NCBI RefSeq assembly: GCF_011516945.1
Contig: NZ_WOTH01000001.1
Span: forward strand, 1-64,000
Direction: 5' to 3'
Origin: Acetobacter estunensis
GTDB lineage: Bacteria; Pseudomonadota; Alphaproteobacteria; Acetobacterales; Acetobacteraceae
DNA: 64,000 bases
Shown here: piece after piece, positions 20,768 through 60,597 of the stretch
How the letters are laid out: each line of letters begins with the position of its first letter
How positions within the stretch are numbered: position 1 is the first letter of the stretch
The notes under the pieces: model-generated
Databases searched by the model: none
What the model was told of the DNA's origin: nothing
What the model saw: only the letters and a program-made list of their open reading frames with translations
Position numbers and translations under genes: made by a program

Positions 20768-20776
20768 GCGGTCAGA

Positions 20777-22808: not shown

Positions 22809-22830
22809 GTGTTTTCAGGCAGATCCGAGT

Positions 22831-24738: not shown

Positions 24739-24763
24739 GGGCGCGACTGTAGATTAAGCGCGT

Positions 24764-27443: not shown

Positions 27444-27474
27444 GATGGACTGAAGCCTCCGAACGGAAAGCGGG

Positions 27475-28185: not shown

Positions 28186-28191
28186 CGAGAC

Positions 28192-29732: not shown

Positions 29733-29734
29733 GT

Positions 29735-30550: not shown

Positions 30551-31536
30551 GGGGTGGGGAGCGCAGCAATCAGGCTGCTGTCGATGGAATGGGCCGGGTC
30601 GAGACGAACGGATGCGGCTCCGTTCTCAAGGTTGAGGTTCATGAGAGTGGCGAAGATCTCCGTAATCTTCCCCGGTTTCTCGGGTGTGCCCATATAAGCC
30701 TTGGACTGTGCCAGATCCGTGTATTCAAGGCTTCCCACGACACTTTTCTTGAAATCGTCGGTCGAAAGATCGAAGTGGGGAGCGGCAACTTTCGCGAAGT
30801 TTTCCGGGTTGGACTTGTAATAGGCCACGGCTTTGTAAAGGCAGGTCAGAAAGCGCTTGTATTTGTCGGGATTGGCCTTCAGATCGTCATTGCGGGCCAC
30901 GAGGACATCCACGATGTAGTCGGGATAATCCGCCGATGAGACCAGTTCTTTCGGATTGCGGTCGGACGAGACGGTCAGGATCTGCTGAAGAAATGGCTGA
31001 TAGGTCACGACCGCCGCAATGCTTGGGTCTGCGAACACTGCCACGCTGTCGGAGGTCAGGATTTCCTTCATCTTGAGATCGGCCAGCGTCATGCCGTGCT
31101 TGTGCAGTTCCATCTGCAGCAGCAGGCGGCCCGGAATGTTGCTCTCTGATGCAACAGTCTTGCCTTTGAGTTCGCTCACGTCGTGGATGGAGCCGTCAAC
31201 GATTACACCGTCGCCGCCAAGGCTGCGGTCGATGGAGCCGATGATGATGCCCGGAGTGGTCTCGTCACGCGGCCGGCCCTGATATTCGTTGAGAGCGCGC
31301 ATCTCCATCTCGATGGAACCGTGCGCCATGGCGGCCATGACATCGGACCGTTCATCGGAGAATTTCAGATCGACGGACAGATGGGCGTCCTTGAAATAAC
31401 CGAGATCCTGAGCGACCACGACGGGCGCGAACCCCGTCCAGACCGGTGCCATGATACGGATCGTGTCGTCGGCATGTGCGGCCGTCGTCGCGCAGCCAAA
31501 ACTGAGTGCAACTGCGAGCACCTTGAGTGACTTCAT
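30547..31536 (-). CDS. ABC transporter substrate-binding protein (NMT1/TauA-like)
   Basis: A 329-residue periplasmic binding protein. The ATG at 31536 gives a clean signal peptide (MKSLKVLAVALSFGCATTAAHA, cleavage before DDTIRIM), with a G-rich ribosome site. The mature part starts like NMT1/SsuA-type proteins (IMAPVWTGFAPVVVAQDLGYFKDAHLSV). It is the first gene of the overlapping run to 24764 and follows a probable promoter with a palindromic operator. Confidence 0.92.
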   Translation of the reverse strand: MKSLKVLAVALSFGCATTAAHADDTIRIMAPVWTGFAPVVVAQDLGYFKDAHLSVDLKFSDERSDVMAAMAHGSIEMEMRALNEYQGRPRDETTPGIIIGSIDRSLGGDGVIVDGSIHDVSELKGKTVASESNIPGRLLLQMELHKHGMTLADLKMKEILTSDSVAVFADPSIAAVVTYQPFLQQILTVSSDRNPKELVSSADYPDYIVDVLVARNDDLKANPDKYKRFLTCLYKAVAYYKSNPENFAKVAAPHFDLSTDDFKKSVVGSLEYTDLAQSKAYMGTPEKPGKITEIFATLMNLNLENGAASVRLDPAHSIDSSLIAALPTP

Positions 31537-31601
31537 TACGCACCCCCACCTCATAACGTTACCGAAACATATTAGAGGCGCGATTGCTTTGTGTGTATCA
31601 A

Positions 31602-45046: not shown

Positions 45047-45909
45047 AGGGTGTTATGTACTTTCTGGCGTGAGTGTTGCAGAACAGATGGATGAATACTG
45101 CCCGCAAACCGTATCCGTCTGATATCAGTGACGAAGAGTGGTCTCTGATTGTTCCCTATCTCCTTCTGATGAAAGAAGATGCAGAGCAGCGACGTCATGA
45201 TCTGAGAGAGTTGTTCAACGGTCTTCGGTATGTGATCCGTTACGGCATTGCATGGCGTGCGATGCCGAACGATCTGCCGCCATGGACTGCGGTTTACCAG
45301 CAATCGCGGCGCTGGATGGAAGCAGGATGTTTCGAGGCTGTTGTCCACGATCTTCGGGCTGTACTGCGTATTGCGGCAGGCAGGAAGGCGGAGCCGACGA
45401 CGGTAGTCATCGACAGCAGGACACTGCGTTCGACCCCGGAAAGCGGGCCACGGTCCGGGTATGATGGTGCGAAAAGAAAGAAGGGATCGAAGCTGCACAT
45501 GGCGGTCGATACTCTGGGGCATCTTCTGGCTCTGCATGTCACCCCGGCAAACAGGGACGACCGGGCGGAAGTCGGTCCACTGGCGCAAGCCATTCAGGAG
45601 GCAACAGACGGTAGTGTGGAACTGGCATGGGCTGATCAGGGCTATACCGGATCAAAACCGGAAAAAGCTGCCAAAGAGCAGGATGTCACTCTCGAAATCG
45701 TTAGACTACCTCAGGCTAAACGGGGTTTCGTTCTGCTGCCACGTCGCTGGATCGTGGAGAGATCGTTCGCATGGGCAACACGGTGCAGAAGGCTCGTAAA
45801 AGACTACGAGCGCTGTGCTTCAACCCTCGCCGCAATGCACACCATCGCCTTCGCAGGTTTCATGCTGAAAAACGCAGCTAACCTGCTCATCCAAAGTGCA
45901 GAACACCCT
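45047..45909 (+). mobile_element. Intact IS5-family insertion sequence, 863 bp
   Basis: The ends are AGGGTGTTATGTACTTT (left) and AGGGTGTTCTGCACTTT (right, complement), 15 of 17 identical, flanked by CTAG duplications. One transposase gene fills the element. It is inserted between the PiT stop codon (45036-45038) and the terminator at 45954-46003. The clean repeats and intact gene suggest a recent, probably active copy. Confidence 0.9.
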
Positions 45910-46104
45910 CTAGGGGAAATACCGTCGGGTATTTCCTCCTTCTCCTTGTTTCCAGCCCCGTCTGTTGCTGTCATGACGACATGCGGCAGACGGGGCTTTT
46001 TTTATGGAGATGTGCTCGTCAGATCGCCATGTCTGTCGATCGAATTTGTTTTGGTGGGTAAGCGGCGATACTGCTGGTCGTCTATCATAAAGGCGTCAGC
46101 CTAA
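45091..46104 (+). CDS. IS5-family DDE transposase, reading through the IS end
   Basis: The transposase begins at 45091 (MNTARKPYPSDISDEEW) with an N-terminal DUF4096-like domain (about residues 7-80) and a DDE catalytic core: Asp108 (VVIDSRTL), Asp182 (AWADQGYTG), Glu223 (IVERSFAW). The frame has no stop inside the element. It passes through the right repeat (EHPLGE) and ends at 46104, adding about 64 host-encoded residues. Stops supplied by the target or flank are known for some IS5 elements. The extra tail and the PiT terminator hairpin lie in this readthrough part. Confidence 0.88.
   Translation: MNTARKPYPSDISDEEWSLIVPYLLLMKEDAEQRRHDLRELFNGLRYVIRYGIAWRAMPNDLPPWTAVYQQSRRWMEAGCFEAVVHDLRAVLRIAAGRKAEPTTVVIDSRTLRSTPESGPRSGYDGAKRKKGSKLHMAVDTLGHLLALHVTPANRDDRAEVGPLAQAIQEATDGSVELAWADQGYTGSKPEKAAKEQDVTLEIVRLPQAKRGFVLLPRRWIVERSFAWATRCRRLVKDYERCASTLAAMHTIAFAGFMLKNAANLLIQSAEHPLGEIPSGISSFSLFPAPSVAVMTTCGRRGFFYGDVLVRSPCLSIEFVLVGKRRYCWSSIIKASA
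45915..45936 (+). repeat. 9-bp hairpin just outside the IS right end
   Basis: GGAAATACC (45915-45923), tetraloop GTCG and GGTATTTCC (45928-45936) make a perfect stem. Before the IS inserted, it followed the PiT stop codon directly, so it is probably part of that gene's 3-prime untranslated region. Confidence 0.5.
45954..46003 (+). terminator. Intrinsic terminator of the PiT gene, now behind the IS
   Basis: AGCCCCGTCTG (45954-45964) pairs perfectly with CAGACGGGGCT (45987-45997), followed by seven T residues (45997-46003). It is the strongest terminator in the window and was evidently separated from the PiT gene by the IS. Confidence 0.9.
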
Positions 46105-47043: not shown

Positions 47044-50000
47044 CTACGTCGCTTCCTTATTCGTCTGACATGCCGGTGTCGAACGGGCCTGAGTCAGCGC
47101 CTTTTCCAGTCGGGCACGCGTGGCAGTTCCCATGCGTCCCATGCCACAGGCTTTACGCATCGCGCTCAGAAGATCGCTCTCGCTGTATCCGTTCCCATCG
47201 AGAGAGCGGGCGAGCGTGACGAGGGCCGCCAGCGGAACCGTTGAGGGGTCGAGGCTTTCCCCGGCTGCAGGCGCGGGAAAGGGGATATCTGTCTCGGGTG
47301 AAAAATGCGGTGGCCAGATGAAGGTGCCGCAGTCTTCCATGCTGCGTGTCAGTGTCGGCGGAATGGCTGTGAGAATCCGCTGACGGATGTCGCGTCCTAC
47401 GCGAGCAAAGCCGTGGTTGCGCGAGAGGGATTGGACGAGAATATCTTCGCGGATCGGCCCTTTCTCTGTCACGAGATATTCGATCATGGCCTGTAAATGC
47501 GGCGTATAATCTTCTTCGAAGAAGCGCTCATGGTCGGCAGGAATACGTGGTGTGGGTTCTATTGTGTTCACGGGACCGCGCGCGAGAAGAGTAGGACGGG
47601 GCATTTCCGCTGTCGTAGAGAAGGTCTTTTCTGGCGCGTGCGGAGCGGAGTCCTTGGTATCTTCCTCCGGTTTGGATGCATTTTCTCGCAGGGCTTCCTC
47701 CGCCGCCGCCTGTGCGGCGACGGCGCTCTTGCGATCACGTTCTTCCTGTTCGGCGCGGCGCTTGCGTGTCTGCTCCAGAACGCTGCGTAACTGCTGGTCG
47801 ATGCGGTCGCATTCGCGGGCGGCGTTGGTCCACCAGTCGGTGGACCATATACGCAGAATGGACCATCCAAGCCCTTCCAGCACTGTCTGACGCAGTCGGT
47901 CCCGGTCCCGAGCCGTGGCGCTGCGGTGATAGGTCGCGCCGTCGCACTCCACGCCTGCGAGGAATGCGGCAGCACGGTCGGGATCGACAATGCCAAGGTC
48001 GATGCGAAAACCCGAGACGCCCACTTGTGGAATTACCTGCCACCCCTTGCCGCGCAGAAGCGCGGCAACTTCTTCCTCGAACAGGCTGTCGAACCCGCCT
48101 ACGGAACCTTCGTCCACGCCTGCGAGCGCTTTTGAACCGTGTTCGGCAAAGACGAGGAACTTCCGGAGATCGCGCACGCCCTGTGCGCTGGTGCGGTTGA
48201 TGTCGATGCGGTCCGGACGGAAGGAACCGAACACGACCAGCTTTTCACGGGCACGGGTGATGGCCACGTTGAGTCGCCGCTCTCCACCATCGCGATTGAG
48301 GGGGCCGAAATTAAGCGTCATGTGGTTTGCCTGATCGGGACCATAGGTGAGGGAAAAGAGCATGATGTCGCGCTCTTCTCCCTGCACGTTTTCAAGATTG
48401 CGGATCAGCACGGGTTCATTGGCATCGTCATTGAAGAAACGCTCGATGTCCGGATGGCTCTCGCGGGCCTTATCGAACAGGTCGGTGATGAGGGTCTGCT
48501 GCTCGCTGTTGAAGGTGACGATGCCCAGAGAGCGGTTCGTGCCGTCGCGCAAAAGCGTGAGTGCTTCCGCCACGATGGCCTGTGCTTCCATCGGGTTGGT
48601 GCGCGCGCCACCGCGCAGATAGACGCTATCGGGCACGAAGCGGAAGGAAACCGCCCGATCCTGTGTGACGGGTGAGGGAAAGGTGATGAGCTGACCGCCG
48701 TAATAGGCGTGATTGGAGAAGGCGATCAGGCTTTCGTGACGACTGCGATAGTGCCAGTTGAGTTGTACGGAGGGGATGCCCGCACCACGACACTCATCAA
48801 GGATGGATTCCAGATCGCAGGTTTCGGCGTCACGGACGCTTTCGTCTTCACTGGCGCTGCGATTGAAAAAATCCGTCGGGGGAAGCTGTTTCGGATCGCC
48901 CACGACGATCACCTGCCGTCCACGGCCGATCACGCCGATGGCGTCCCATGTCGGGATTTGCGAGGCCTCATCGAAGATGACGAGATCGAAAGGCTGCGCG
49001 TCATGGGGAAGATATTGCGCGACGGAAAGCGGGCTCATCATCAGGCAGGGCGTGAGCTGACGCAGCGCGTGAGGCATTTTTTCGGCAAGCTGGCGGATGG
49101 GCAGGTGACGCGCCTTCTTTGCCGCTTCGCGTGTGAGAACCTTGTATTCCGTGTCGGTTGCCCGGGTTTGCGCGTCAGGGATCTGGCCGGCGAGACGGGC
49201 ACGGGTCAGTTGCGTGGCCATCTTCATGATCTGGCGGTCGAGTTCACGAAACCGCTCGATGCTGCGCTCATGCGTGGCAGCGACAAAACCGCGCAGGAGC
49301 GGGGACCGTTCGACGGCTCCTGTGAGCCACCAGCGGGCATAGTTGGCCTCGAACACCGTTACGGTTTCGGGGGCCGGGATGAGTCCGCTTTCCACCGCGT
49401 CCACCAGTGGGCCGAGGCCGAGCCGCTCCGCGCGTTGGCAGGTGAGTTTCCAGTTGCACCAGTCACGCAGGTTTCGTGACGCTGCAATCCAGCCTCTCAA
49501 GCGTTTTGTCAGGGCAGGAAGCCAGTCGGGGGCCGTGGTGTCGGCCATGCGATCGGGTGCTGTTTCGCTGATCGTTGCGAATGTTTCAAGATTTTTGATA
49601 ACGGTTTCAAGATTTTGGCTGAACGTGTCGAACGACGCGCGTGCCGATCCGCTGGGAGTGAGCAGATCGCGTCCTTCTGACAGCAGTGCCCGCAGGTGGG
49701 TGCGTGCGGCCAGCAGGACCGTGACATCGGGGGCACAGGTGGCCAGCGCTGCGCGGGTAGAGCGGCCCCAGGCGTGATGCGCGTCCACACGGTCGAAATC
49801 CGTATCCAGTCCCTGCCACAGAGTCGTTCCGACTGTAAGACCATGTGGCGCATCGGCCAGATGCTTTTCAATGTCACGCAATGCAATCAGACGTTGCAGA
49901 TCCGGTGCGCAATCCTCGGGCAGTGCGCCATCTGCGTGCGGTTCGAGTTGCTTGCGGACGGATTTGATGGCCTTGGATTTGGCGAGAAACTGAAAAACGG

Positions 50001-53000
50001 ATTTTTCCTGCGCTTCGTTCCATGTTTTCAGAAGATCATCCAGAGGCAAGGTTTTTGCCTCGGGTTTCCATGCGACGGAAAGCTGAGCGGTCAGTTCGCC
50101 ATGACGGGCGATGTGTGGCTTTTCGGCATGCATGGCATTGCGGGTGGCGTCCGAATCTTCTGCGAAAGCCCACGCGGATGCTTCATCTTTTTCAAGACAG
50201 GCGCAAAGGATTCGCAGATGCTGCAGTGCGGGAAGGGACATGTCCTCGATCCCGAGATTCAGCGTCTTGCGTACGGCTTTCGTACTGACGGCGAGTTGCT
50301 CGACCCCTGTTAGAAGAGTGCGGGCGGCATCCACGAAATCCTTTTCCCACTGGGGCCCCCACTCCGTCCGGTCCAGACCGGAGAGCGCGGGTGAACTGAT
50401 GACATCGCCGATCCGTTCATGAACACTGGCAATATCGTCGGCGGCTTTGCATAGTGCTTCGTATCCGTCCTCGTCGTGCATGTCCGGTGAAGGCCATGTG
50501 AAGGTAAGTGGCAGGAGCTGGGCGTCATCGGCCCGCAGAACGACGCCGATGGCGCGGAAGGGTGTCCACCCGTTGCGCCAGCGCTGGTGAAGTTCATGGA
50601 CATAGGCATTCAGTTCGCCGCGTAGGAGATTGATCTGCTCGCGGGAGCGGCGCCAGTCGCCTTCATCGAAACGATCAAGCACGTTCTGGGCCGTCTGGAA
50701 TTGTTCCAGCACGGCCATCTTGCTCGCTTTGGGCGAGAACAGGTCGAGGCAGAACTCCGCAAGTCCGATCTGACGCAGGCGGTTGCGCACCACTTCCAGA
50801 GCGGCGCGTTTTTCCGCCACGAACAGGACCGAGCGGCCCTGTGCCAGCGTGTTGGCAATGATGTTCGTAATAGTCTGACTTTTTCCGGTTCCCGGTGGGC
50901 CGATCAGCACGAAGTTGTCTCCCGCCGCTGCGCGGGCGACAGCGCGGAGCTGGGAGGAATCGGCCTCCATCGGACAGGCGAGATCGGCCTGCGAAAACAG
51001 TTCATCCAGCGCGCCATCCGTTTCTGTCATGGGCGCGGCACCGGTGGAGGAGGGGCTGTCCTCGCTCACGCCGTCGAGCAGGCGACGGGCGACCTCGTTG
51101 GAGCGCAGGCTTTCGCGACGCTCCAGCAGATCTTTCCACATGAGGAACTTGGCAAAGGACAGGGTGGTCAGAGCGACGTCATCGTGCACTTCCCATCCTG
51201 GAACATTTCTCAGGCCCGCGCGAAAGATAGTGATGATGCGGGTGACATCCAATCCGTTGCCATCTTCGGGGAGTTGGTCCCCTTCCAGTTCGGGGAAGCG
51301 GAGGTTGTAGTCGTTGCGCAGCATTTCCAGCAGTGTGATGTTCACGCGGCTGTCATCGCCGTGCGGGCGCAGCACGAAGCCGGAGCGCACACTGGGGCGT
51401 TCGAGCGTCACGGGCACGAGGATCAGCGGGGCCAGCCAGGGGGTATCGCCGTCCTTGCGGGTCCATGCGAGTGCGCCGATGGTGAGATAAAGGATATTGG
51501 AGCCACCCTCCTGCTCGGCGGACTGGCCACGACGGTAGATTTCGGTCAGAGCGGCCTGAAGCGCGGTTTCGGTGCGCGCGACGAGCAGTTCGCGCCGGTC
51601 GAGAGCTTCGATGGCGTAGGCGCGGGCGGCATCTTCGTGCAGGCGGTCATGATGCAGCGCAGCGTCCCGCGGATCGCCGTCTTTCATCATGTCGGGCCAT
51701 GGGCAGAATCGCAGAGGGCGACCTTTCCCGCCAGCGCGGAGGCTGGCGAGTGTGTCCTCGAGCCTGCCCGGATCGGGGCAGTCGATACGGATGATCTGCT
51801 TTTCGCTTTTGGGTAGGTTCAAAAGCCGGTTGCGCCCCGACATGTCGAGCAGGCGGTTGCACCAGCGACTGATGCGGTCAGCAGGAGAAGACGCAGCGTC
51901 CTCTTCCGTCTCCAGCCTGTCTTCACGCAGGCTCGGCGTGTCCTCGAAGGCGGGTTGGTCCTCGGAGCCTGCGTTTTTTGTTTCTTTCTCTGCTGTGGCG
52001 GTGGTGTTGGCGCCGGGCATGGAGAGCGGACGGATGCGACGCAGGCGTGCACGATGAATGTCGATGAGTTCGCAAAATGTGTTGTCTTCGTCCTCTCCCG
52101 CGTGGCGAAGATTGGCTTCTCCTTTCTCGCACGCCACGGTGAAGGACGGTTTGCGGTCGAGAGTGACGAGGGTGGTCTCGAACACCTTGATCTCGTCCAG
52201 CTTCAGACGGTTGCGCAGGCTGGGAAGATCACGGGTGACGGAGGTGAGGGTGTCGGATTTCGTCAGCCAGACGCCCGTGAAGGCATGACCTTCGGTGATG
52301 ACGATGAGCGGGTGCAGCCCCACGGCTTCCAGACAGGCGGCGAACAGCAGCGCCGTATCGAGACAGGTGCCGAGGCGTTCTTCCATGATCTGGGAAGGCA
52401 GACGCACACGCTGGCCGTTTTCCACGAAAGAAGCAGGCGGGCTGATATAGGTGATGTCCAGCGCACAGATGGCGCACCAGATGGCTTGCGCCTGTTCCCA
52501 CACACGCGCCTTGTCGCGCTGGTAGCCTTCAAGCGTGTGTGGTTTTCCGGCGGCGCGGAGAATCTCGGAAGCGCTGCGCAGGATGCGGCCGATGGCGGGG
52601 TCGTTTGGTAGCACGAAGGCGGCGAGGATATCGGGAACGCCGGACAGGCCGCCCCATTCGCTGCGGGCCAGTACGCGGATGTCATGAGTCTTGCGCAGCA
52701 GTTCTTCTACGCCGCTGCGGACGATGAAGGTGATCTCCGCACGAGAGGCTTCTGTCTGCTGCTGGAGCCATGTGCCGTTTAGCCGCACATCCTGCGGGCG
52801 CAAACTGCGGTATTCGCCGGCGCCAACCTGCTGGAGCCGCCATGTGTGCGGCTGGATGGCGGGAGGCTCACAGGTCAGGCTGATTTCGAGTTCGGACCAG
52901 CTTTTGGAAGTGGCGTTTTCCAGCGCTAGTTCCGACAGAAACGGCACGCTGTTTTCCCATAAAGCGGCGTTGACGGAGTCCTGAAGGCTGACATGCAGTT

Positions 53001-53070
53001 GAAGATGGGCTGGAGACTCGTCAGAGAGCGCGGTTGCGGAAGTGTCCACATCCATTGATTCGCCGGTCAT
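47044..53070 (-). CDS. Giant DUF4011-SF1 helicase-Vsr-like nuclease-DUF3320 protein, candidate defence gene
   Basis: One chain of 2008 residues. Order: an N-terminal beta-rich part; a transglutaminase-like segment with Cys236 (LGTCLDTALLFA) and His262 (TEGHAFTGVWL); a Glu/Ser-rich linker (about 355-395); DUF4011 from about 400 (RWCNRLLDMSGRNRLLNLPKS). Then an SF1, Upf1-like helicase: Walker A GPPGTGKS at 724-731, a long helical insert, Walker B DEAS with Asp1367-Glu1368, GDPKQLPP, and late RLNVAITRAREKLVVFGS. Then a Vsr/DUF559-like nuclease with RIDLGIVDP and VECDG (Glu1708), a charged coiled linker, and a DUF3320 winged-helix region (about 1840-1930). This architecture, without the N-terminal part, is reported as a single-gene anti-phage system (I recall the name Hhe). 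All motifs look intact. Confidence 0.88.
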   Translation of the reverse strand: MTGESMDVDTSATALSDESPAHLQLHVSLQDSVNAALWENSVPFLSELALENATSKSWSELEISLTCEPPAIQPHTWRLQQVGAGEYRSLRPQDVRLNGTWLQQQTEASRAEITFIVRSGVEELLRKTHDIRVLARSEWGGLSGVPDILAAFVLPNDPAIGRILRSASEILRAAGKPHTLEGYQRDKARVWEQAQAIWCAICALDITYISPPASFVENGQRVRLPSQIMEERLGTCLDTALLFAACLEAVGLHPLIVITEGHAFTGVWLTKSDTLTSVTRDLPSLRNRLKLDEIKVFETTLVTLDRKPSFTVACEKGEANLRHAGEDEDNTFCELIDIHRARLRRIRPLSMPGANTTATAEKETKNAGSEDQPAFEDTPSLREDRLETEEDAASSPADRISRWCNRLLDMSGRNRLLNLPKSEKQIIRIDCPDPGRLEDTLASLRAGGKGRPLRFCPWPDMMKDGDPRDAALHHDRLHEDAARAYAIEALDRRELLVARTETALQAALTEIYRRGQSAEQEGGSNILYLTIGALAWTRKDGDTPWLAPLILVPVTLERPSVRSGFVLRPHGDDSRVNITLLEMLRNDYNLRFPELEGDQLPEDGNGLDVTRIITIFRAGLRNVPGWEVHDDVALTTLSFAKFLMWKDLLERRESLRSNEVARRLLDGVSEDSPSSTGAAPMTETDGALDELFSQADLACPMEADSSQLRAVARAAAGDNFVLIGPPGTGKSQTITNIIANTLAQGRSVLFVAEKRAALEVVRNRLRQIGLAEFCLDLFSPKASKMAVLEQFQTAQNVLDRFDEGDWRRSREQINLLRGELNAYVHELHQRWRNGWTPFRAIGVVLRADDAQLLPLTFTWPSPDMHDEDGYEALCKAADDIASVHERIGDVISSPALSGLDRTEWGPQWEKDFVDAARTLLTGVEQLAVSTKAVRKTLNLGIEDMSLPALQHLRILCACLEKDEASAWAFAEDSDATRNAMHAEKPHIARHGELTAQLSVAWKPEAKTLPLDDLLKTWNEAQEKSVFQFLAKSKAIKSVRKQLEPHADGALPEDCAPDLQRLIALRDIEKHLADAPHGLTVGTTLWQGLDTDFDRVDAHHAWGRSTRAALATCAPDVTVLLAARTHLRALLSEGRDLLTPSGSARASFDTFSQNLETVIKNLETFATISETAPDRMADTTAPDWLPALTKRLRGWIAASRNLRDWCNWKLTCQRAERLGLGPLVDAVESGLIPAPETVTVFEANYARWWLTGAVERSPLLRGFVAATHERSIERFRELDRQIMKMATQLTRARLAGQIPDAQTRATDTEYKVLTREAAKKARHLPIRQLAEKMPHALRQLTPCLMMSPLSVAQYLPHDAQPFDLVIFDEASQIPTWDAIGVIGRGRQVIVVGDPKQLPPTDFFNRSASEDESVRDAETCDLESILDECRGAGIPSVQLNWHYRSRHESLIAFSNHAYYGGQLITFPSPVTQDRAVSFRFVPDSVYLRGGARTNPMEAQAIVAEALTLLRDGTNRSLGIVTFNSEQQTLITDLFDKARESHPDIERFFNDDANEPVLIRNLENVQGEERDIMLFSLTYGPDQANHMTLNFGPLNRDGGERRLNVAITRAREKLVVFGSFRPDRIDINRTSAQGVRDLRKFLVFAEHGSKALAGVDEGSVGGFDSLFEEEVAALLRGKGWQVIPQVGVSGFRIDLGIVDPDRAAAFLAGVECDGATYHRSATARDRDRLRQTVLEGLGWSILRIWSTDWWTNAARECDRIDQQLRSVLEQTRKRRAEQEERDRKSAVAAQAAAEEALRENASKPEEDTKDSAPHAPEKTFSTTAEMPRPTLLARGPVNTIEPTPRIPADHERFFEEDYTPHLQAMIEYLVTEKGPIREDILVQSLSRNHGFARVGRDIRQRILTAIPPTLTRSMEDCGTFIWPPHFSPETDIPFPAPAAGESLDPSTVPLAALVTLARSLDGNGYSESDLLSAMRKACGMGRMGTATRARLEKALTQARSTPACQTNKEAT

Positions 53071-53505: not shown

Positions 53506-54402
53506 ATGAAGAATCTTGATCTGTTCCGGTCTTTCGCTGCTCTTGGAGAACTCTGCAACTTCTCTGACGCCGCCGCACGACTGGGAATCACTCAGCCCAC
53601 TCTGACCAAGCAGATTGCACGGCTTGAAGACATGATGGGCACGCAGTTGTTCGAGCGCTCTCGGCAGGGAACGGAGCTTACCGCTTTCGGCTGCCAGTTT
53701 CTGGCTGAGGTGCAGCCGCTGGTGCGCGAAGCGAACCGTATATGGGAACGCGGATTGCGAATGGCCCATGGAGAAACTGGCCAGCTTGCCATTGGCTTTA
53801 CGTTTTCCGCTTTGGAAATCATGACGCGCGCGTTGATCGCCTACCGTGACGCCTATCCGGAAGTTGAACTGACTTTCAACGACATTTCCTCACAGTCCCA
53901 GTTGCCGATGGTGCGTGAACGGCAACTCGACGTCGCGTTTGCCCGCTGGCCAGCGGCCCCTGATCTTGCCTCCTGTCTGATCTCGCGTGACAGGCTGGCT
54001 TTCGTCTTTCCTGTTGCGCTTGAGGACCGGATCGCAACGATCGATAGCCCTGCCGTAAGCGGGCTGCCATTTATCCGACTGAAGAAATCTGTGGCGCCGG
54101 GTTTCGAAGAGGCTGTGGAGCGACTGTTTGCGTGGAAGGGTATTGATCCCGCCGTGACGCATTGGGTCAATGAAAGCCTTGTACAGCTGCGCATGGTCTC
54201 CGCAGGGTTGGGTGTAGCGGTGATGCATGAGTCGGCCCTTTCGGGCGTGATCGACACTCATGCGATCGTTGCCCAAGGAATCGAGGGACCGGCCCTCTCG
54301 TGGCAGGTGGGCATGTTCTGGCGCAAGGACGAGAAAAATCCTGTCGTCGGAAATTTCCTGCGTATCGCGCATGAGATGATGCGAACCTCATCTGCCTCAT
54401 GA
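53506..54402 (+). CDS. LysR-family transcriptional regulator
   Basis: A 298-residue LysR protein with an N-terminal HTH (LDLFRSFAALGELCNFSDAAARLGITQPTLTKQIARLE, about residues 4-42) and a ligand-binding domain. It starts after AGAAGGGCATC. It is on the same strand and 170 bp before the monooxygenase cluster, whose promoter it probably controls. The ligand may be the pathway substrate. Confidence 0.9.
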   Translation: MKNLDLFRSFAALGELCNFSDAAARLGITQPTLTKQIARLEDMMGTQLFERSRQGTELTAFGCQFLAEVQPLVREANRIWERGLRMAHGETGQLAIGFTFSALEIMTRALIAYRDAYPEVELTFNDISSQSQLPMVRERQLDVAFARWPAAPDLASCLISRDRLAFVFPVALEDRIATIDSPAVSGLPFIRLKKSVAPGFEEAVERLFAWKGIDPAVTHWVNESLVQLRMVSAGLGVAVMHESALSGVIDTHAIVAQGIEGPALSWQVGMFWRKDEKNPVVGNFLRIAHEMMRTSSAS

Positions 54403-54571
54403 ACGAATGGAACAAGAGCCGCCGTCTATTTCGGAGGTCAACGTCATTCCATAAGTTATCACGGAAGGAAACTCTTTACGGTTCAAAGCCGGAGATTACG
54501 CTGCCTATGCTGCGTGAAAGAGAGGGTAGCGCTGCTCCCACAGCGTGATGCCAGCAGAAGAGAGGCGGCTC

Positions 54572-55933
54572 ATGACCAGACAGATGCATCTCGCAGCTTT
54601 CATGAACGCAGGGCCGATGGGCACCACAGGCTGGCGCCATCCCGATGCCGATCCCGGCTTCATGACGCCCGGCTATTATCGCAAAATCGCGCGCATTCTT
54701 GAGAGCGCGCGTTTCGATCTGGCCTTCATTCCCGATGCCCTGTCCATGCCCCGTTCACTGGGGAACTCATTCCGCCCGGCGGTGGAGTGGGGATCCGGCA
54801 CGCCACGTCTGGACCCCATGACCGTGCTGGGCGTTATGGCCGGGGTGACCGAGCATCTGGGGCTCGCCGCCACGATTTCGACCGGTTATCACGAACCTTA
54901 CAATCTTGCCCGGACCCTTGGCACATTCGATTACATGACCGATGGGCGTGCGGGCTGGAACATTGTGACGTCCTTTCAGGATGCGGAGGCCCAGAATTTC
55001 GGACAGCCCCGTCTTCCGCCGCGTGACGAGCGTTATGCGCGCGCTGAAGAAGTGCTGGAAGCCACGACCCGGCTATGGGACAGCTGGGATGACAATGTGA
55101 TCTTTCAGGATAAGGAAGGCGGACATTTCGGTGATCCTGATCGGGTGCGGTCGGTGGATTATTCCGGACAGTATGTCAGCACGCAGGGACCGTTGTCAGT
55201 GCCTCGCCCTCCACAGGGGTATCCGCTTCTGATTCAGGCTGGTGCGTCGCCTCGTGGGCGTGATTTTGCGGCCCGCTGGGCCGATGTCATCTTCTCCAGT
55301 GCGGAATCTCTCGAAAGCGCGGCAGCTTTCTATGCGGACATCAAGAACCGGGCCCGGGCGCATGGGCGCGATCCTGAGCAGATCCGTATCCTGACCGCAG
55401 CCACGGTTGTTGTGGGTAGGACGGATGAGGATGCCATGGCGCGGCATGTGGCCTTTGTCGATCTGGTGCACCCCCTCGCCGGGCTGTCGCGACTTGCGTA
55501 TCATGTCAATGTAGATCTCACGAAATACGACCTTGATGGCCCGCTTCCCACGCTCGATGAGGTGGGTGTGCAGGGGCATTACGAAGAAGTCGTGGAATTT
55601 GCCCGACGTGAAAATCTCTCGGTCAGAGAGATCGGCCGCTGGTACGGGGCACGCACGGAAGGCAACATGATCGGCTCTCCCGCAAGCATTGCCGACAATA
55701 TGGAATTGTGGATGAAGGAGGGGGCCTCGGACGGCTTCATGGTGCAGGCCACACATCTGCCTGCGGCTTTCGAGGATTTTGCCCGTTTTGTCGTGCCGGA
55801 ATTGCAGAGGCGAGGTCTTCACCGCACGGAGTATACCGGTCGCACGGCACGTGAGACGCTGGGGCTTGCACGTCCCGCCCGCGATGAGTGGAAAAATCGT
55901 ATTGCTCCCGGACGTAAGGGGAGCGTGGGATGA
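54572..55933 (+). CDS. NtaA/SnaA/DszA-family FMNH2-dependent monooxygenase
   Basis: This 453-residue luciferase-like monooxygenase uses reduced FMN supplied by a separate reductase. N-terminal sequence GPMGTTGWRHPDADPGF, STGYHEPYNLARTLGTFDYMTDGRAGWNIVTS and QAGASPRGRDFAARWADVIF are hallmarks of the nitrilotriacetate/dibenzothiophene-sulfone/pristinamycin IIA group. ATG 54572 has a GAGAGG site; an upstream GTG at 54545 is weaker. Its stop overlaps the rhodanese start (ATGA). Family members cleave C-N or C-S bonds, so the substrate is probably a small N/S compound. Two flavin reductases are encoded downstream. Confidence 0.9.
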   Translation: MTRQMHLAAFMNAGPMGTTGWRHPDADPGFMTPGYYRKIARILESARFDLAFIPDALSMPRSLGNSFRPAVEWGSGTPRLDPMTVLGVMAGVTEHLGLAATISTGYHEPYNLARTLGTFDYMTDGRAGWNIVTSFQDAEAQNFGQPRLPPRDERYARAEEVLEATTRLWDSWDDNVIFQDKEGGHFGDPDRVRSVDYSGQYVSTQGPLSVPRPPQGYPLLIQAGASPRGRDFAARWADVIFSSAESLESAAAFYADIKNRARAHGRDPEQIRILTAATVVVGRTDEDAMARHVAFVDLVHPLAGLSRLAYHVNVDLTKYDLDGPLPTLDEVGVQGHYEEVVEFARRENLSVREIGRWYGARTEGNMIGSPASIADNMELWMKEGASDGFMVQATHLPAAFEDFARFVVPELQRRGLHRTEYTGRTARETLGLARPARDEWKNRIAPGRKGSVG

Positions 55934-56814
55934 CGCTTCCCGATGGTCCACTGATCGCGGCACCTTGGCTTGTCGCGCATCGTGCTGAGGTGATCGTGCT
56001 TGATGCCTCTGTCGGTAGGGTAGATCGTCCGGGAGGCGCCACGGCTTTTGTTTCCGGTCGGGATGTGTTCACGGCAGAGCATATTCCCGGTGCCCATCTG
56101 GCCGATTTGTTCGGAGCGTTTTCCGACCCGGATGCCCCTTTTGCGTTTACACGTCCGCATATTGCGGCGCTTGAACGGGAAGCGCGTCGGCTCGGCATCC
56201 GTAACGACAGCGACGTGGTGGTCTATGATCGCCTTGGGGGCGCGTACGCGGCGCGTATCTGGGTTCTTTTTCGTGTCTGTGGATTTGACAGGGTGCGCGT
56301 GCTCAATGGCGGTCTGGCGGCATGGGTCCATGCAGGCGGTATTGTGGAAACCGGGCCTGAGGTCTCAGCTTCTCCCGGTGATTTCACCGCTCGTCCCGCA
56401 CCTTCGATTTTTGTCTCGACCGAGGAGGTGGTGGAACTGATCGCCTCCGGTGACACGTCCCGTTCGCCTCTGGTCTGCGGTTTGCGAAAGGTTCAGTTCA
56501 CGGCGGAAGGCAGCAATGATCCACGTCTTGGTCACATCCCGGGCAGCCTGAACCTGCCGTATGCGGACCTGCTCGACGGCATGGGGCGGCTGGATTTTGC
56601 GCGGCTCAACAGCGCGTTGGAGGATCTGCAACTCGGACCGGAATTGGGCCGTCAGATAACGCCGGTGCTGTATTGCGGCGGTGGCATCAATGCTGCGGGT
56701 TTGGCTTTGGCCCTTGCCGCGACAGGGCGACCTTCTTTCCGGATCTATGATGATTCGATGAATGGCTGGACGGCCGATCCGTCGCGTCCCGTGCACCGTG
56801 GGCAGGAGAGGTAA
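55930..56814 (+). CDS. Rhodanese-type sulfurtransferase (two-domain)
   Basis: A 294-residue protein with tandem rhodanese domains, like thiosulfate or 3-mercaptopyruvate sulfurtransferase. The N-terminal domain has YDRLGGAYAARIWVLFRVCGFDRVRVLNGGLAAW; the C-terminal domain has LGHIPGSLNLPY and the active-site loop YCGGGINA with Cys249. CGGGI is close to the SseA loop CGSGV. It overlaps the monooxygenase by ATGA and is followed by the amidase, so it likely accepts sulfur released in the same pathway. Confidence 0.88.
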   Translation: MTLPDGPLIAAPWLVAHRAEVIVLDASVGRVDRPGGATAFVSGRDVFTAEHIPGAHLADLFGAFSDPDAPFAFTRPHIAALEREARRLGIRNDSDVVVYDRLGGAYAARIWVLFRVCGFDRVRVLNGGLAAWVHAGGIVETGPEVSASPGDFTARPAPSIFVSTEEVVELIASGDTSRSPLVCGLRKVQFTAEGSNDPRLGHIPGSLNLPYADLLDGMGRLDFARLNSALEDLQLGPELGRQITPVLYCGGGINAAGLALALAATGRPSFRIYDDSMNGWTADPSRPVHRGQER

Positions 56815-56815
56815 T

Positions 56816-58207
56816 GTGACCGATCTGCCCCCGATGAGTGCCGCCGAACTGACGCAGGCTTATGGGGCTGGCACGCTTTCCCCGGTCGAAGTGGCTGAAG
56901 CAGCACTGGCTGTGGTGGCGGGGCCTGCGGCGAGTCTCAATGCTGTGGCAAGTTCCGATGCCGATATGGTCCACGAGAGCGCGCGGGCAAGTGCCTGCCG
57001 TTGGAAAGCGGGGCGGCCATTGGGACCGCTGGACGGCGTGCCCATAAGCTTCAAGGACAGTTTCCATATCAAGGGGCTGCCGCGCTGGCATGGCACGGCC
57101 TGTCATGAAGGTGTCGTCTCTGGGGCCGATGCGCTGCCGGTCATTCGCGCCCGGGAAGCGGGAATGATCGTAACTTGCAAGACCACGATGCCGGATTTCG
57201 CGATGATCATGTCCGGGATCAGCTCCGAACACGGTGTGATCCGCAATGCATGGGATCCGCGTACAAGTCCGGGTGGGTCTTCGTCCGGGGCCGGACCCAG
57301 CGTGGTGCTGGGAGCCGCGACCATTGCCCTTGGCACCGACATGGTCGGCTCTGTTCGCATTCCCGCCGCTCTGTCGGGGCTGGCGTCCATCAAGCCCACG
57401 CAGGGGCGTATTGCTTACGACCCTCCCGGGGCTTACCGCAGCGCGGGCCCGATGGCGCGGACGGTGGGAGATGTCACGTTGGCGCTGGGCGCCCTTGGCC
57501 GGTTCGCGCATGAGGATTTCTATTCGCTGGATGGCCGTTTCGTGCCGGCTCCTCCTCCGACAGACCTCAAGGGGCAACGGATTGCGGTCTGGAAACGGGC
57601 GGGTTGGGGGGATGCGACCGATGCGGAAACCCTGACGGCTGTTGACTGGGCTGCGGAGCAGTTGAGCGCTCGTGGTGCCGAACTGATCGAGATCAAGGAT
57701 CTGGATGTCGGTGCTGACGATTACATGGCGATTCACTGGAACATGCTGCATGTCGGTGCTCCCGATTACTTCGGGCTGCCCGCTGCGGCGCGGGGTCGGA
57801 TCGCTCCTCCCATAGGGGCGCTGTATGATGGCCTGCTCTCTCAGTCTGCCATTCACGCCGCCAGCGTGACGCGCCGTGTCAACATGGCGGCGATCCGGGT
57901 GGCCCGGCAGTTGGCCTCTTTCGATCACGTGCTGTCACCAGCCGTGCCGGTGCGTGCTTTTCCCGCTGAACTCTGTTGTCCCGACCCACGATGGGGTGCG
58001 GCCAGTCATCAGGCCTTTGCCTGCTGGTTCAACCAGATCGGCTGGCCCGCCGCCACCGTGCCGGTCCATCAGCCTGAAGATGGTGACGTGCCGGTTTCCG
58101 TCCAGATCGCGGGCCGACGTTTCGACGATGCGCGGGTTCTTGGAATCGCAACCTTACTTGAGACTGCACGCGGGTTTGCCATCCGCTGGCCGCAGGTCCG
58201 GACATGA
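56816..58207 (+). CDS. Amidase signature family hydrolase
   Basis: A 463-residue serine amidase. The Ser-cisSer-Lys triad is visible as Lys80 (GVPISFKD), Ser155 (PGGSSSG) and Ser179 (GTDMVGSVRIPA). The GTG at 56816 has an AGGAG site and starts one base after the rhodanese stop codon. AS enzymes hydrolyse amides, carbamoyl groups or nitrile-derived amides. In this cluster it could cut the amide or ester-like product formed after monooxygenation. Confidence 0.9.
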   Translation: MTDLPPMSAAELTQAYGAGTLSPVEVAEAALAVVAGPAASLNAVASSDADMVHESARASACRWKAGRPLGPLDGVPISFKDSFHIKGLPRWHGTACHEGVVSGADALPVIRAREAGMIVTCKTTMPDFAMIMSGISSEHGVIRNAWDPRTSPGGSSSGAGPSVVLGAATIALGTDMVGSVRIPAALSGLASIKPTQGRIAYDPPGAYRSAGPMARTVGDVTLALGALGRFAHEDFYSLDGRFVPAPPPTDLKGQRIAVWKRAGWGDATDAETLTAVDWAAEQLSARGAELIEIKDLDVGADDYMAIHWNMLHVGAPDYFGLPAAARGRIAPPIGALYDGLLSQSAIHAASVTRRVNMAAIRVARQLASFDHVLSPAVPVRAFPAELCCPDPRWGAASHQAFACWFNQIGWPAATVPVHQPEDGDVPVSVQIAGRRFDDARVLGIATLLETARGFAIRWPQVRT

Positions 58208-58273
58208 ATGCGTCGGGTTGCAGCAGTTGGCGCAATTATCATCACGCCTTTGATGGAGCAGCAGGAGGGTGAA

Positions 58274-58657
58274 ATGAGCCGTCAGACTGTCTCGACTGGC
58301 AGTTCCTATGAGGAACTCATGGGATACGCCCGCGCGGTTAGCCAGAGCGGGCATGTGTTCGTGTCAGGCTGTTCGGGACTGGCACAGGAAGGGGCCGCGC
58401 ATGGTGACGCCACGGTCCAGTTCGCTCGTGCCGTGGAGAAAGTCGCAAGAGTTCTGGGGCAAGCGGGAGCGAGCCTTGCCGATGTGGTCCGTAGCCGCGT
58501 TTATCTGACGGACCCGCAGGACTGGCAGGCGCTCATCCGCGCGCATGGCGTGGCCTTTTCCGCAATCCGTCCGGCCTGCACGATGGTGCTGGTTGCGGGT
58601 CTTATCGATCCGGCCATGAAAGTCGAGCTGGAAGTTACAGCCATGAAAGATGCCTGA
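58274..58657 (+). CDS. Rid family protein lacking the RidA catalytic arginine
   Basis: A 127-residue Rid (YjgF/UK114) protein. The start at 58274 (MSRQTVSTGSSYEE) has AGGAGGGTGAA upstream; open sequence further up is not needed. The conserved VFVSGCSGLA and the late MVLVAGLIDPAMKVELEVTAM are present. At the position of RidA Arg105 (VAR) it has VAG, so canonical imine deaminase activity is doubtful, as in Rid4-7 subfamilies. Its place after an oxygenase and an amidase recalls RutC. Confidence 0.87.
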   Translation: MSRQTVSTGSSYEELMGYARAVSQSGHVFVSGCSGLAQEGAAHGDATVQFARAVEKVARVLGQAGASLADVVRSRVYLTDPQDWQALIRAHGVAFSAIRPACTMVLVAGLIDPAMKVELEVTAMKDA

Positions 58658-58676
58658 ACCGGATGGGCATTTTTTT
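58650..58676 (+). terminator. Intrinsic terminator overlapping the Rid stop
   Basis: ATGCC (58650-58654) pairs with GGCAT (58666-58670), followed by seven T residues (58670-58676). It partly separates the first four catabolic genes from thiM and the reductases. Confidence 0.65.
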
Positions 58677-58728
58677 ATGGTTGCTTGATCTCACAGATAC
58701 CTGAGCATCGCCACCGCTGGAGATACGC

Positions 58729-59514
58729 ATGAAGGAACTGACCTGGAAAGATCCTGAGATCCGCCACGAACTGGCGCGTCTCAAGGCGCTTAAACCCTTC
58801 TGCTACGGGCTTACCAATTACGTTGCGGCCAATCTTTCGGCGAATGTTCTGCTGGCCGTAGGGGCAGGACCGGCCATCGGCACGGCGATGGACTGGCCAG
58901 CCGTGTTCGGTCGTCACGCCCATGCGGTGTGGATCAATGCCGCCAGCCTGATGAGTTGTGGCCCGGAAGATATCCGTCTGGCCGCCCGTTCGGCACACGA
59001 GGCCGGAGTGCCGTGGGTTCTGGACCCTGTTGCGGTGGGAGCCGGGGCGCCAGCCTATGACGCGGTGGTGAAAGGTCTTCTGGAATTCAGGCCGACTGCT
59101 ATTCGTGGCAATGCGTCCGAACTGATCGCTCTGGCTGGCGGTCAGGGGGGAGGACAGGGGGTCGAAACGACGATGACGTCCGATCAGGCCGTGCCTTTTC
59201 TGGAGAATGTCGCGGCCAGCATCGGCACAGTCGCGGCTGTCAGCGGTCCTGTGGACTACATCACGGATGGCCGCGTGACGTATGCGGTGGGTGGGGGCGA
59301 TGTGCGGCTGACACAGGTGACGGGAGCGGGCTGTTCATTGGGTGCCCTCATGGCGGCGATGCTGGCTGGCGCACAGGACCGGATGATGGCCGTCGCGGCG
59401 GCCCATGCCGTCTATGCCGAAGCCGCCGAACGCGCGCAGCCAGCGGTGGGCACGGGCAGTTTCGCGGTGGCCTTTCTCGATCAGCTTTCGCTGCTGAATC
59501 CCTTGGAAGAGTGA
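58729..59514 (+). CDS. thiM: Hydroxyethylthiazole kinase
   Basis: ThiM (261 residues) phosphorylates 4-methyl-5-(2-hydroxyethyl)thiazole in thiamine salvage. The ribokinase-like motifs are clear: YGLTNYVAANLSANVLLAVGAGP, the VLDPVAVGAG segment, IRGNASELIALAGG, VSGPVDYITDG and VTGAGCSLGALMAA with the anion-hole and Cys. No other thi genes are here. Its position between a Rid protein and an FMN reductase is odd for a salvage enzyme, and suggests the pathway handles a thiazole or thiamine fragment. A weak GGAG precedes the start. Confidence 0.92.
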   Translation: MKELTWKDPEIRHELARLKALKPFCYGLTNYVAANLSANVLLAVGAGPAIGTAMDWPAVFGRHAHAVWINAASLMSCGPEDIRLAARSAHEAGVPWVLDPVAVGAGAPAYDAVVKGLLEFRPTAIRGNASELIALAGGQGGGQGVETTMTSDQAVPFLENVAASIGTVAAVSGPVDYITDGRVTYAVGGGDVRLTQVTGAGCSLGALMAAMLAGAQDRMMAVAAAHAVYAEAAERAQPAVGTGSFAVAFLDQLSLLNPLEE

Positions 59515-59557
59515 TGTGACCATCCGGTTGTTACCGGGTGCATAGGAGAATTGAAGC

Positions 59558-60094
59558 ATGAAGATCACCATGCTCTGCGGCAATCCCTCCGCTGGAGGCC
59601 GTACGACGGCTCTTGGCATGGAAGTGGCACGCGCACTGGCGTCTTTACTCGGAGCGCAGGAGCCAAGTGCTCCGATCGAGCTTGCCGAGCACACACAGGG
59701 TCTTTTCAGTTGGGGGCACGAAGAACTGGCCGCCGTCGTCAGGGAGGTGGCGGAGAGCGATTTTATCGTCATCGCCACACCGACTTACAAGGCGAGTTTC
59801 ACAGGGCTACTGAAAAGTTTTCTCGATCAATATGGCGCGGGTTCCCTGCGTAACAGGGTGGTGCTTCCTGTCTTTACGGGAGGTTCGGCTGCTCACAGTC
59901 TGGCGCCGGATTACACATTGCGGCCGCTGCTTGCGGAACTCGGTGCCAGCGTGCCGGGATCAAGCCTCTATGTGATGACGTCAGAACTGGAACGTCAGTC
60001 CGAGATTGTTGCCGATTACATCGAAGTCAACCGCTATGTCCTGCTCGGTGCCGCTCATGGCGTCTCTTTGGCGCGGCAAGGGGTGGAGGGATGA
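59558..60094 (+). CDS. NAD(P)H-dependent FMN reductase (SsuE/MsuE-like)
   Basis: A 178-residue flavodoxin-like reductase. The FMN phosphate loop GNPSAGGRTTALG is at residues 8-20, and ATPTYKASFTGLLKSFLDQ is the family's second motif. Such proteins supply FMNH2 to monooxygenases. Its stop overlaps the flavin reductase start by 4 bp. Confidence 0.88.
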   Translation: MKITMLCGNPSAGGRTTALGMEVARALASLLGAQEPSAPIELAEHTQGLFSWGHEELAAVVREVAESDFIVIATPTYKASFTGLLKSFLDQYGAGSLRNRVVLPVFTGGSAAHSLAPDYTLRPLLAELGASVPGSSLYVMTSELERQSEIVADYIEVNRYVLLGAAHGVSLARQGVEG

Positions 60095-60597
60095 GCGGTC
60101 TTGTTGCGACGGCCATAGATCCCACCCATCTGCGCGAGGTGGTCGGAGCTTATGTCTCGGGCCTCACCATTGTTACGTCTCGGCTCCCGGGCGGTGAACT
60201 TGTGGGCATGACCTGTCAGAGCTTCCATTCGCTTTCGCTCAATCCACCGCTTGTGGCTTTCTTCGCGGGGAGGCATTCGAAAAGCTATGCCGCTCTACGC
60301 TCGGCAGGTGGGTATGTGATCAATGTTCTCGCAGCCGACCAGAAGGCGCTGGCCTTGCAGTTCGCCCGTTCGAGTGGAGACAAATGGGCTGGCGTGAAGT
60401 TTCACGACGATGCTGCCGGCCTGCCGCGTCTTGACGGGGCCATTGCGCATATTTCCTGTTCTCAGGCGGCGGAATATCCCGGTGGGGATCACATGATCGC
60501 AGTTGGGCAGGTGAGGGAGCTGGCGCACGATCCAGCAAAACGGCCCCTGCTTTTCTTTCGTTCCGATTTTCACAGGCTGTATGTGGCGGAGGAATGA
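60091..60597 (+). CDS. Flavin reductase domain protein
   Basis: A 168-residue split-barrel flavin reductase of the HpaC/NtaB/RutF type: VSGLTIVTSRLPGGELVGMTCQSFHSLSLNPPLVAFF and GGDHMIAVGQVRELAHDPAKRPLLFF. The ATG overlaps the preceding FMN reductase stop (ATGA). Two different flavin reductases for one visible monooxygenase is unusual; one may serve another substrate step or the FMO elsewhere. Confidence 0.9.
   Translation: MSGLVATAIDPTHLREVVGAYVSGLTIVTSRLPGGELVGMTCQSFHSLSLNPPLVAFFAGRHSKSYAALRSAGGYVINVLAADQKALALQFARSSGDKWAGVKFHDDAAGLPRLDGAIAHISCSQAAEYPGGDHMIAVGQVRELAHDPAKRPLLFFRSDFHRLYVAEE

What the first reader, a model, noticed from the sequence alone, without database searches (positions are those of the whole stretch)
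53506..60597. Possible undescribed oxidative N/S-heterocycle pathway: LLM monooxygenase, rhodanese, amidase, Rid, ThiM, two flavin reductases
Seven enzyme genes and a LysR gene are packed on one strand, with 4-bp or near-zero spacing at three junctions. The parts parallel the Rut pathway (luciferase-like monooxygenase RutA, hydrolase RutB, Rid protein RutC, flavin reductase RutF), but include a sulfurtransferase and a thiazole kinase. A consistent model is oxygenation and opening of a sulfur- and nitrogen-containing ring (thiazole or thiamine-derived), amide hydrolysis, then sulfur capture. I do not know a described pathway with this set. ThiM may instead be a passenger, as a terminator separates it from the first four genes.
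Basis: partly seen in the sequence, partly recalled or inferred. Interest (0 to 1): 0.75.

Follow-up and report, generated by a model that had tools for sequence, protein, structure and literature searches.

The report
Probable vitamin B1 thiazole breakdown cluster
This bacterium carries a small, probably horizontally spread gene set in which an oxygen-using enzyme, a sulfur-transfer enzyme and a thiazole kinase recur together in distant bacteria, and which probably takes apart the sulfur-containing ring of vitamin B1, a route I did not find described.

Summary
The genes are as described, with three corrected starts. A core of three (luciferase-like monooxygenase, a distinct rhodanese subfamily, a distinct ThiM subfamily) lies within 7 kb in 14 of 15 loci examined that carry this monooxygenase subfamily, in two phyla; the 15th (Nakamurella) lacks ThiM. 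Amidase (8/15), LysR (7/15) and Rid (4/15) come and go; relatives of the two flavin reductases were seen only in the window. Neighbours of three clusters point to vitamin B1: TenA twice, a thiaminase-I-like gene once. Cluster ThiMs show no TPP riboswitch, whereas the canonical thiM of two of the same genomes lies directly behind one. The monooxygenase keeps DszA's oxygen pocket but not its sulfone-binding residues. Best model: hydroxyethylthiazole is phosphorylated, its ring opened between C2 and S, amidase and Rid release formate and ammonia, and the 3-mercaptopyruvate-type rhodanese takes the sulfur of the remaining alpha-mercaptoketone. The gene association is shown; substrate and every reaction step are inferred. 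Salvage, or a different heterocycle, remain possible.

The parts
53506..54402 (+). LysR-type regulator
   Evidence: Pfam HTH_1 + LysR_substrate; a similar LysR is beside 7 of 15 clusters, window included
54572..55933 (+). Luciferase-like (NtaA/DmoA/DszA-type) flavin monooxygenase, core gene; ORF opens at GTG 54545
   Evidence: TIGR03860 489 bits; best solved relative DszA 5tlc; 63-89% identity to the unbroken copies at the other loci
55930..56814 (+). Two-domain rhodanese, 3-mercaptopyruvate sulfurtransferase type with active loop CGGGINAAG, core gene
   Evidence: Pfam Rhodanese; best solved relative SseA 1urh; shared features of 28 chosen relatives
56816..58207 (+). Amidase-signature hydrolase, optional gene; ORF opens at 56762 but GTG 56816 is the likely start
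   Evidence: Pfam Amidase; Lys and two Ser of the catalytic triad (recalled) kept in 7 of 7 aligned copies
58274..58657 (+). Rid-family protein, optional gene; ORF opens at 58208
   Evidence: Pfam Ribonuc_L-PSP; Cys at the RidA Arg105 position
58641..58680 (+). Terminator-like hairpin with U run between Rid and thiM
   Evidence: -14.8 kcal/mol, z -2.95
58729..59514 (+). ThiM-like hydroxyethylthiazole kinase of a distinct subfamily, core gene
   Evidence: HK 202 bits; below the thiM TIGR00694 cut-off (199 against 256) but above PRK09355; subfamily motifs; only HK match in the genome
59558..60094 (+). SsuE-type NAD(P)H:FMN reductase, seen at this locus only; possible FMNH2 supply
   Evidence: FMN_red; no similar gene within 7 kb at 14 other loci
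60091..60597 (+). HsaB/RutF-type flavin reductase, seen at this locus only
   Evidence: Flavin_Reduct; no similar gene within 7 kb at 14 other loci

Best explanation
An accessory catabolic cluster that breaks down the thiazole half of vitamin B1 (hydroxyethylthiazole, HET) and recovers its sulfur and nitrogen. Proposed order: ThiM phosphorylates HET and traps it; the FMNH2-dependent monooxygenase, by DszA/RutA-like flavin-N5-peroxide chemistry, attacks C2 and breaks the C2-S bond, giving an N-formyl (or thiocarbamate) enethiol; the amidase removes the formyl group; Rid (or water) hydrolyses the enamine and frees ammonia; what remains, a 3-mercapto-5-(phospho)hydroxypentan-2-one, is an alpha-mercaptoketone like 3-mercaptopyruvate, and the MST-type rhodanese takes its sulfur as a cysteine persulfide. 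A HAD-family phosphatase removes the phosphate where present. Shown: genes, families, conserved association, kept catalytic residues. Inferred: the substrate and every step.
For: Trio together in 14 of 15 loci; LLM-rhodanese fusion P0181; pairwise distances of the three proteins correlate, r 0.77-0.87 over 13 loci (inflated by shared ancestry). The window ThiM keeps 8 of 10 HET contacts and the Mg2+ residues (K115 as R) of S. aureus ThiM, mapped by motif (PMC4785402). TenA beside 2 clusters; a thiaminase-I-like gene whose Cys and Glu face C113 and E241, with a TonB receptor, beside 1. HAD-family gene between amidase and Rid in 3 of 14 loci. No TPP riboswitch above the Rfam cut-off at any of 14 loci scanned, while the canonical thiM of Pantoea rodasii and Sinirhodobacter populi lie about 80 and 70 b behind one. 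LLM keeps the six O2-pocket residues named for DszA (F12, F56, T106, N135, A228, F246) and H316, but not H20 or Q80 that contact the sulfone.
Against: No substrate is shown. Nakamurella has LLM, rhodanese and amidase without this ThiM; its only ThiM is canonical and elsewhere. The Gordonia alkanivorans ThiM lacks about 46 residues including the Mg2+-binding stretch. The ThiM subfamily also occurs without the trio (second copy in Komagataeibacter diospyri). Two pocket residues differ (Met39 to Ile, Gly61 to Ala), so the substrate may not be plain HET. Amidase, which the full scheme uses, is missing from 7 of 15 loci and Rid from 11 of 15; the Rid lacks the RidA arginine. The rhodanese loop lacks the MST serine (CGGG, not CGSG). 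A thiaminase-like gene was found at one locus only, and its match is weak (44 bits, cut-off 175); not every flanking gene was annotated.
Confidence: 0.45

Rival explanations
1. Salvage, not breakdown: the monooxygenase (NtaA-like oxidative N- or S-dealkylation) and rhodanese release HET from damaged or modified thiamine, and ThiM feeds it back into thiamine synthesis through ThiE.
For: ThiM is the only HK match of this genome, which also has TMP-TENI (ThiE-type) genes; TenA, a salvage enzyme, lies beside 2 clusters.
Against: No ThiE or ThiD among the recurring neighbours that I annotated; no TPP riboswitch at the clusters although 9 of 12 of these genomes have one above the cut-off (the window's own genome has only a weak match, 33.5 bits); Pantoea and Sinirhodobacter already own a canonical thiM; sulfurtransferase, amidase, Rid and a phosphatase are not needed for salvage; LysR/GntR genes rather than TPP control.
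Confidence: 0.2
2. A different hydroxyethyl heterocycle or organosulfur compound is the substrate, and the divergent ThiM phosphorylates that compound.
For: ThiM subfamily has its own motifs and two changed pocket residues; S. aureus ThiM accepts pyrazole and imidazole ethanols (PMC4785402, passages); LLM sulfone-binding residues are lost, so its substrate is unknown.
Against: Thiamine-linked genes beside 3 of 15 clusters; 8 of 10 HET contacts kept; the rhodanese implies sulfur.
Confidence: 0.27
3. A stress or sulfur-starvation sulfonate/thioether utilisation cluster of the Ssu/Sfn/Dsz/Ytn kind in which ThiM is a hitchhiker.
For: LLM family members serve sulfur scavenging (DszA, YtnJ, DmoA-type enzymes are near solved relatives); SsuE-type reductase present in the window; the NMT1-like ABC system beside the Pseudonocardia cluster belongs to a family that also serves sulfonates (recalled).
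Against: ThiM kept with the LLM in 14 of 15 loci with two main gene orders.
Confidence: 0.08

Closest known systems
Rut pyrimidine pathway (RutA-RutF)
   Same: Two-component LLM flavin monooxygenase opens an N-heterocycle; hydrolase, Rid protein and flavin reductase follow
   Different: LLM scores only 60 bits to RutA against 489 to NtaA/DmoA; amidase-signature enzyme instead of RutB; adds rhodanese and ThiM; no RutB, RutD, RutE or RutG model among the hits
Dsz 4S desulfurisation, DszA/BdsA
   Same: Nearest solved LLM (5tlc, 380 bits); oxygen pocket residues kept; C-S bond cleavage proposed
   Different: Sulfone-contacting H20 and Q80 not kept; no DszB- or DszC-like gene among the eight genes; rhodanese instead of a sulfinase
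Canonical ThiM thiazole salvage
   Same: HK family, catalytic Cys and most HET contacts kept
   Different: Distinct subfamily motifs (PFxYGLTNY, PAI, INxA), no TPP riboswitch found, linked to an LLM and rhodanese
Thiaminase I / Bcm thiamine catabolism of Burkholderia (Bcm recalled)
   Same: Starts from vitamin B1; HET is the product of thiaminase I; PMC4475313 (abstract and passages read) treats ThiM as the next degrading step
   Different: I recall no ring-opening step there; no LLM or rhodanese is named in the passages I saw
B. subtilis Ytn/Cmo S-alkylcysteine salvage (recalled; PMC10863075 seen in search listing)
   Same: LLM monooxygenase of the same family (YtnJ/CmoJ) in a sulfur-recovery operon
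   Different: No ThiM or rhodanese that I know of; acts on S-alkyl cysteine
RcaE riboflavin lyase (5w48)
   Same: LLM-family enzyme that degrades a vitamin
   Different: More distant (214 bits against 380 for DszA)

Membership tests
NtaA/DmoA/DszA-type LLM monooxygenases | TIGR03860 above its cut-off | tested here: met
   489 bits against 280
DszA (DBT sulfone monooxygenase) | H20 and Q80 that contact the sulfone | tested here: not met
   H20 falls in a gap, Q80 is not kept (alignment; residues from PMC11134501 passages)
Flavin-N5-peroxide LLM enzymes (DszA, RutA) | O2 pocket F12, F56, T106, N135, A228, F246 | tested here: met
   Kept in 13 of 13 aligned LLMs, F12 in 12 of 12 that cover it (the broken Pantoea copy and Nakamurella were not in that alignment); chemistry itself not tested
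Rut pathway | RutA, RutB, RutC, RutF equivalogs | tested here: not met
   RutA, RutC, RutF models far below cut-off (60/498, 40/169, 46/255 bits) and no RutB among the hits shown
RidA (imine deaminase) | Arg105, essential for imine hydrolysis | tested here: not met
   Cys at this position in 4 of 4 cluster Rids (PMC4433059 passages); the conserved Glu is kept
3-mercaptopyruvate sulfurtransferase | Catalytic loop CG(S/T)G, uncharged unlike thiosulfate rhodanese (recalled) | tested here: inconclusive
   CGGG, best match SseA but below the SseA model cut-off (109/250)
ThiM hydroxyethylthiazole kinase | TIGR00694 above its cut-off | tested here: not met
   199 against 256, though PRK09355 is met (212 against 180)
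ThiM hydroxyethylthiazole kinase | Catalytic Cys190, Mg2+ residues, HET contacts of SaThiM | tested here: met
   All but Met39 and Gly61 kept in the window copy, K115 as R (PMC4785402 passages); the G. alkanivorans copy lacks part
TPP-controlled thiamine genes | TPP riboswitch upstream | tested here: not met
   No Rfam TPP hit at gathering score in the window or 13 related loci; Nakamurella was not scanned
Thiazole-degrading pathway | Turnover of a thiazole | not testable with these tools
   Needs biochemistry

The most novel reading that the evidence does not exclude
A previously undescribed route that opens the thiazole ring of vitamin B1: a DszA-like flavin monooxygenase breaks the C-S bond of (phospho)hydroxyethylthiazole and a 3-mercaptopyruvate-type sulfurtransferase, working on the alpha-mercaptoketone that results, hands the vitamin's sulfur to the cell. 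ThiM is recruited from salvage to catabolism, and the set travels between phyla, at times on plasmids.
Probability: 0.38. Interest if true: 0.8.

Novelty: new variant of a known kind. Interest (0 to 1): 0.6.

Why it matters
Known bacterial thiamine breakdown, as far as I recall, stops at an intact thiazole. A pathway that opens it would close the B1 cycle, explain how some bacteria could use the vitamin as a sulfur and nitrogen source, give a chemical role to a rhodanese subfamily and a ThiM subfamily that databases-mercaptopyruvate sulfurtransferase and hydroxyethylthiazole kinase (names), and add an S-heterocycle to the substrates of flavin-N5-peroxide enzymes. It is directly testable with three purified proteins.

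Tried and rejected
Rut membership: rejected, models far below cut-off. Passenger ThiM: rejected as unlikely. Flavin reductases as core parts: rejected, similar genes seen only here. A TPP riboswitch: sought, none. ThiM-selected test of the association in Pseudomonadota: uninformative, only the window's own genome passed among 398. The gene beside the K. diospyri cluster that I first suspected to be a thiaminase matches aldehyde dehydrogenases. My first gene calls on the GC-rich loci picked wrong-strand frames and were replaced by codon-model calls, which in turn missed the K. diospyri ThiM (found by tblastn). A contig-length overlap of the three homologue lists (of contigs of 3 kb or more, 105 LLM, 83 ThiM and 91 rhodanese; shared 19 LLM/ThiM, 25 LLM/rhodanese, 9 ThiM/rhodanese, 4 all three) is rough, since equal lengths can coincide, and is not relied on. 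Structure prediction was not run; it would not show the substrate.
Full report
OBSERVATION. The eight genes are present, on one strand and tightly spaced. Corrected starts: monooxygenase ATG 54572, amidase GTG 56816, Rid ATG 58274. The hairpin with U run between Rid and thiM is credible.

RECURRENCE. I looked for relatives by several baits. Of the other 74, three have a distant monooxygenase (37-39%) and one a canonical-looking ThiM, none the trio; one of these three, L046, has a rhodanese at 41%. (b) By monooxygenase in the window's family: 13 of 397 genomes pass E 1e-120; the 7 at 63-100% identity (window included) all carry rhodanese and ThiM nearby, the 6 at 46-50% show neither within the up to 1.5 kb fetched on each side. 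(c) By monooxygenase in plasmids: 3 of 1237 matching records exceed 60% identity; two were opened (Paracoccaceae pLA6_001, Pseudonocardia pBCI1-2) and carry the trio; the third was not opened, but its ThiM hit ends about 15 b before its monooxygenase hit. The latter has monooxygenase, rhodanese, amidase and a GntR/FCD regulator but no ThiM in the 18 kb fetched, and its only ThiM is canonical. (e) In a sample of the class only 1 of 385 genomes, the window's own. The set is rare and scattered.

TALLY OVER 15 LOCI (genes similar to the window's within 7 kb): monooxygenase and rhodanese 15, ThiM 14, amidase 8, LysR 7, Rid 4, flavin reductases 1 (the window). By protein clustering over 14 loci: a HAD-family gene 3 (Pfam run on one). 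A GntR/FCD-type regulator is beside all 5 actinomycete loci (L038 and L040 by clustering). Two main orders occur: monooxygenase-rhodanese-(amidase-HAD-Rid)-ThiM and ThiM-monooxygenase-rhodanese-(amidase). In K. diospyri ThiM and a TonB receptor separate monooxygenase from rhodanese. A 743-residue protein of Nocardioides bruguierae (P0181) fuses monooxygenase and rhodanese. In a tree the 13 unbroken trio monooxygenases built in fall, with 10 further homologues, on one side of a supported branch (96/87) against 12 outgroup rows, several with long branches.

LINKS TO THIAMINE. Beside L119 lies TenA (Pfam) and beside L138 (Acidisoma cladoniae) a member of the same protein cluster; L138 also has an NCS1 permease and a dimethylformamidase-like protein. 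Beside L120 a 495-residue protein matches the thiaminase I model weakly (44 bits, cut-off 175, E 1.3e-11) and thiaminase I structures at E 6.5e-5; in the alignment the enzyme's Cys113 and Glu241 (catalytic roles recalled) face Cys and Glu. It sits with a gene of the same cluster as the TonB receptor of K. diospyri. The Pseudonocardia cluster follows an ABC transporter with an NMT1-like binding protein. In Acidisoma silvae an ammonium-transporter-type gene follows ThiM, and a similar gene does in A. cellulosilytica. The remaining loci show no thiamine link in the genes I checked, and many flanking genes were not annotated.

REGULATION. No TPP riboswitch above the Rfam cut-off at the window, L035-L040, L115, L116, L118-L120, L137 or L138 (L163 was not scanned), and none of the 26 places found in 12 whole genomes lies at a cluster. 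The genomes do use it: 11 of 12 have a match, 9 above the cut-off, and the canonical thiM genes of Pantoea rodasii and Sinirhodobacter populi lie directly behind one. For the window's own genome the match is weak (33.5 bits, cut-off 54.3), and G178 has none.

RESIDUES. ThiM: all 14 trio copies read PF-x-YG-[LQ]-TNY-[VI] and AIG where the four canonical-type copies compared (L065, L140, L141, L164) read PL-x-[HQ]-xx-TN and AM. Of the ten HET contacts given for S. aureus ThiM (PMC4785402, passages read), eight are kept in the window, Met39 is Ile and Gly61 is Ala; mapping is by motif. Monooxygenase: the O2-pocket residues named in PMC11134501 (passages read; a computational study) are kept, the sulfone-contacting His20 and Gln80 are not. 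Amidase: Lys-Ser-Ser kept in 7 of 7 aligned (triad recalled). Rid: Cys for Arg105 in 4 of 4, Glu kept. PMC4433059 (passages read) reports that this Arg bonds the carboxylate of ligands and that its loss nearly abolishes imine hydrolysis in RidA; a substrate without carboxylate would fit, but Rid function here is uncertain. Rhodanese: SseA-type; the loop reads CGG-[GA]-[IV]-NA-[AS]-G in 28 sequences, the window's and 27 chosen from the 120 listed.

MECHANISM. See best explanation. The chemical argument is inference: HET lacks a carboxylate, its C2 is the electrophilic carbon between S and N, and ring opening there followed by loss of the formyl group and ammonia leaves an alpha-mercaptoketone, the structural class of 3-mercaptopyruvate. 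Each optional enzyme has a step, and steps without an enzyme in the smaller clusters could be spontaneous or served from elsewhere in the genome.

NOVELTY. Searches of 5.39 million open papers for ThiM with luciferase-like monooxygenase or rhodanese, and for thiamine or thiazole-ring degradation, listed 0 to 3 papers each, none of which by title and start of abstract describes such a pathway; I did not open them, and most subscription journals are not covered. PMC4475313 (abstract and passages read) reports HET accumulating from thiaminase I in Burkholderia and names ThiM as its next degrading enzyme, with no further pathway in the passages I saw. All enzyme families are known; the combination and the proposed substrate appear new, hence a new variant of a known kind.

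Noticed in passing
window 47044-53070 (-): A 2008-residue helicase-like protein next to the cluster matches candidate anti-phage models PDC-S37 (1216 bits) and Hhe (588 bits) in PADLOC.
   Followed up: partly
window 45073-46104 (+): IS4/5-type transposase upstream of the defence-like gene and the cluster; with the absence of the monooxygenase subfamily from the 13 other same-genus genomes listed this suggests an acquired island.
   Followed up: partly
window 15354-31554 (-): A second nitrogen-compound cluster: LysR, M20 hydrolase, GMC oxidoreductase, NCS1 permease, FMO-like enzyme, two arginase-family proteins, creatininase and an NMT1/THI5-type binding protein. A role with the pyrimidine half of thiamine is possible but untested.
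   Followed up: no
L159 8921-9748: Komagataeibacter diospyri has a second ThiM of the same subfamily without monooxygenase or rhodanese in the 11 kb fetched.
   Followed up: partly
Some Burkholderia are reported to own thiaminase I (PMC4475313). Their neighbourhoods were not seen.
   Followed up: no
L035 8663-9990: The Pantoea rodasii monooxygenase gene of the cluster is in two overlapping frames (broken, or a sequencing error).
   Followed up: no
L038 7907-8563: The Gordonia alkanivorans ThiM lacks about 46 residues including the Mg2+-binding stretch.
   Followed up: no
L138 2366-6579: In Acidisoma cladoniae a dimethylformamidase-like gene, a TenA-like gene and a second, distant monooxygenase (39%) lie in a row on the strand opposite to the cluster and meet its amidase end.
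   Followed up: no
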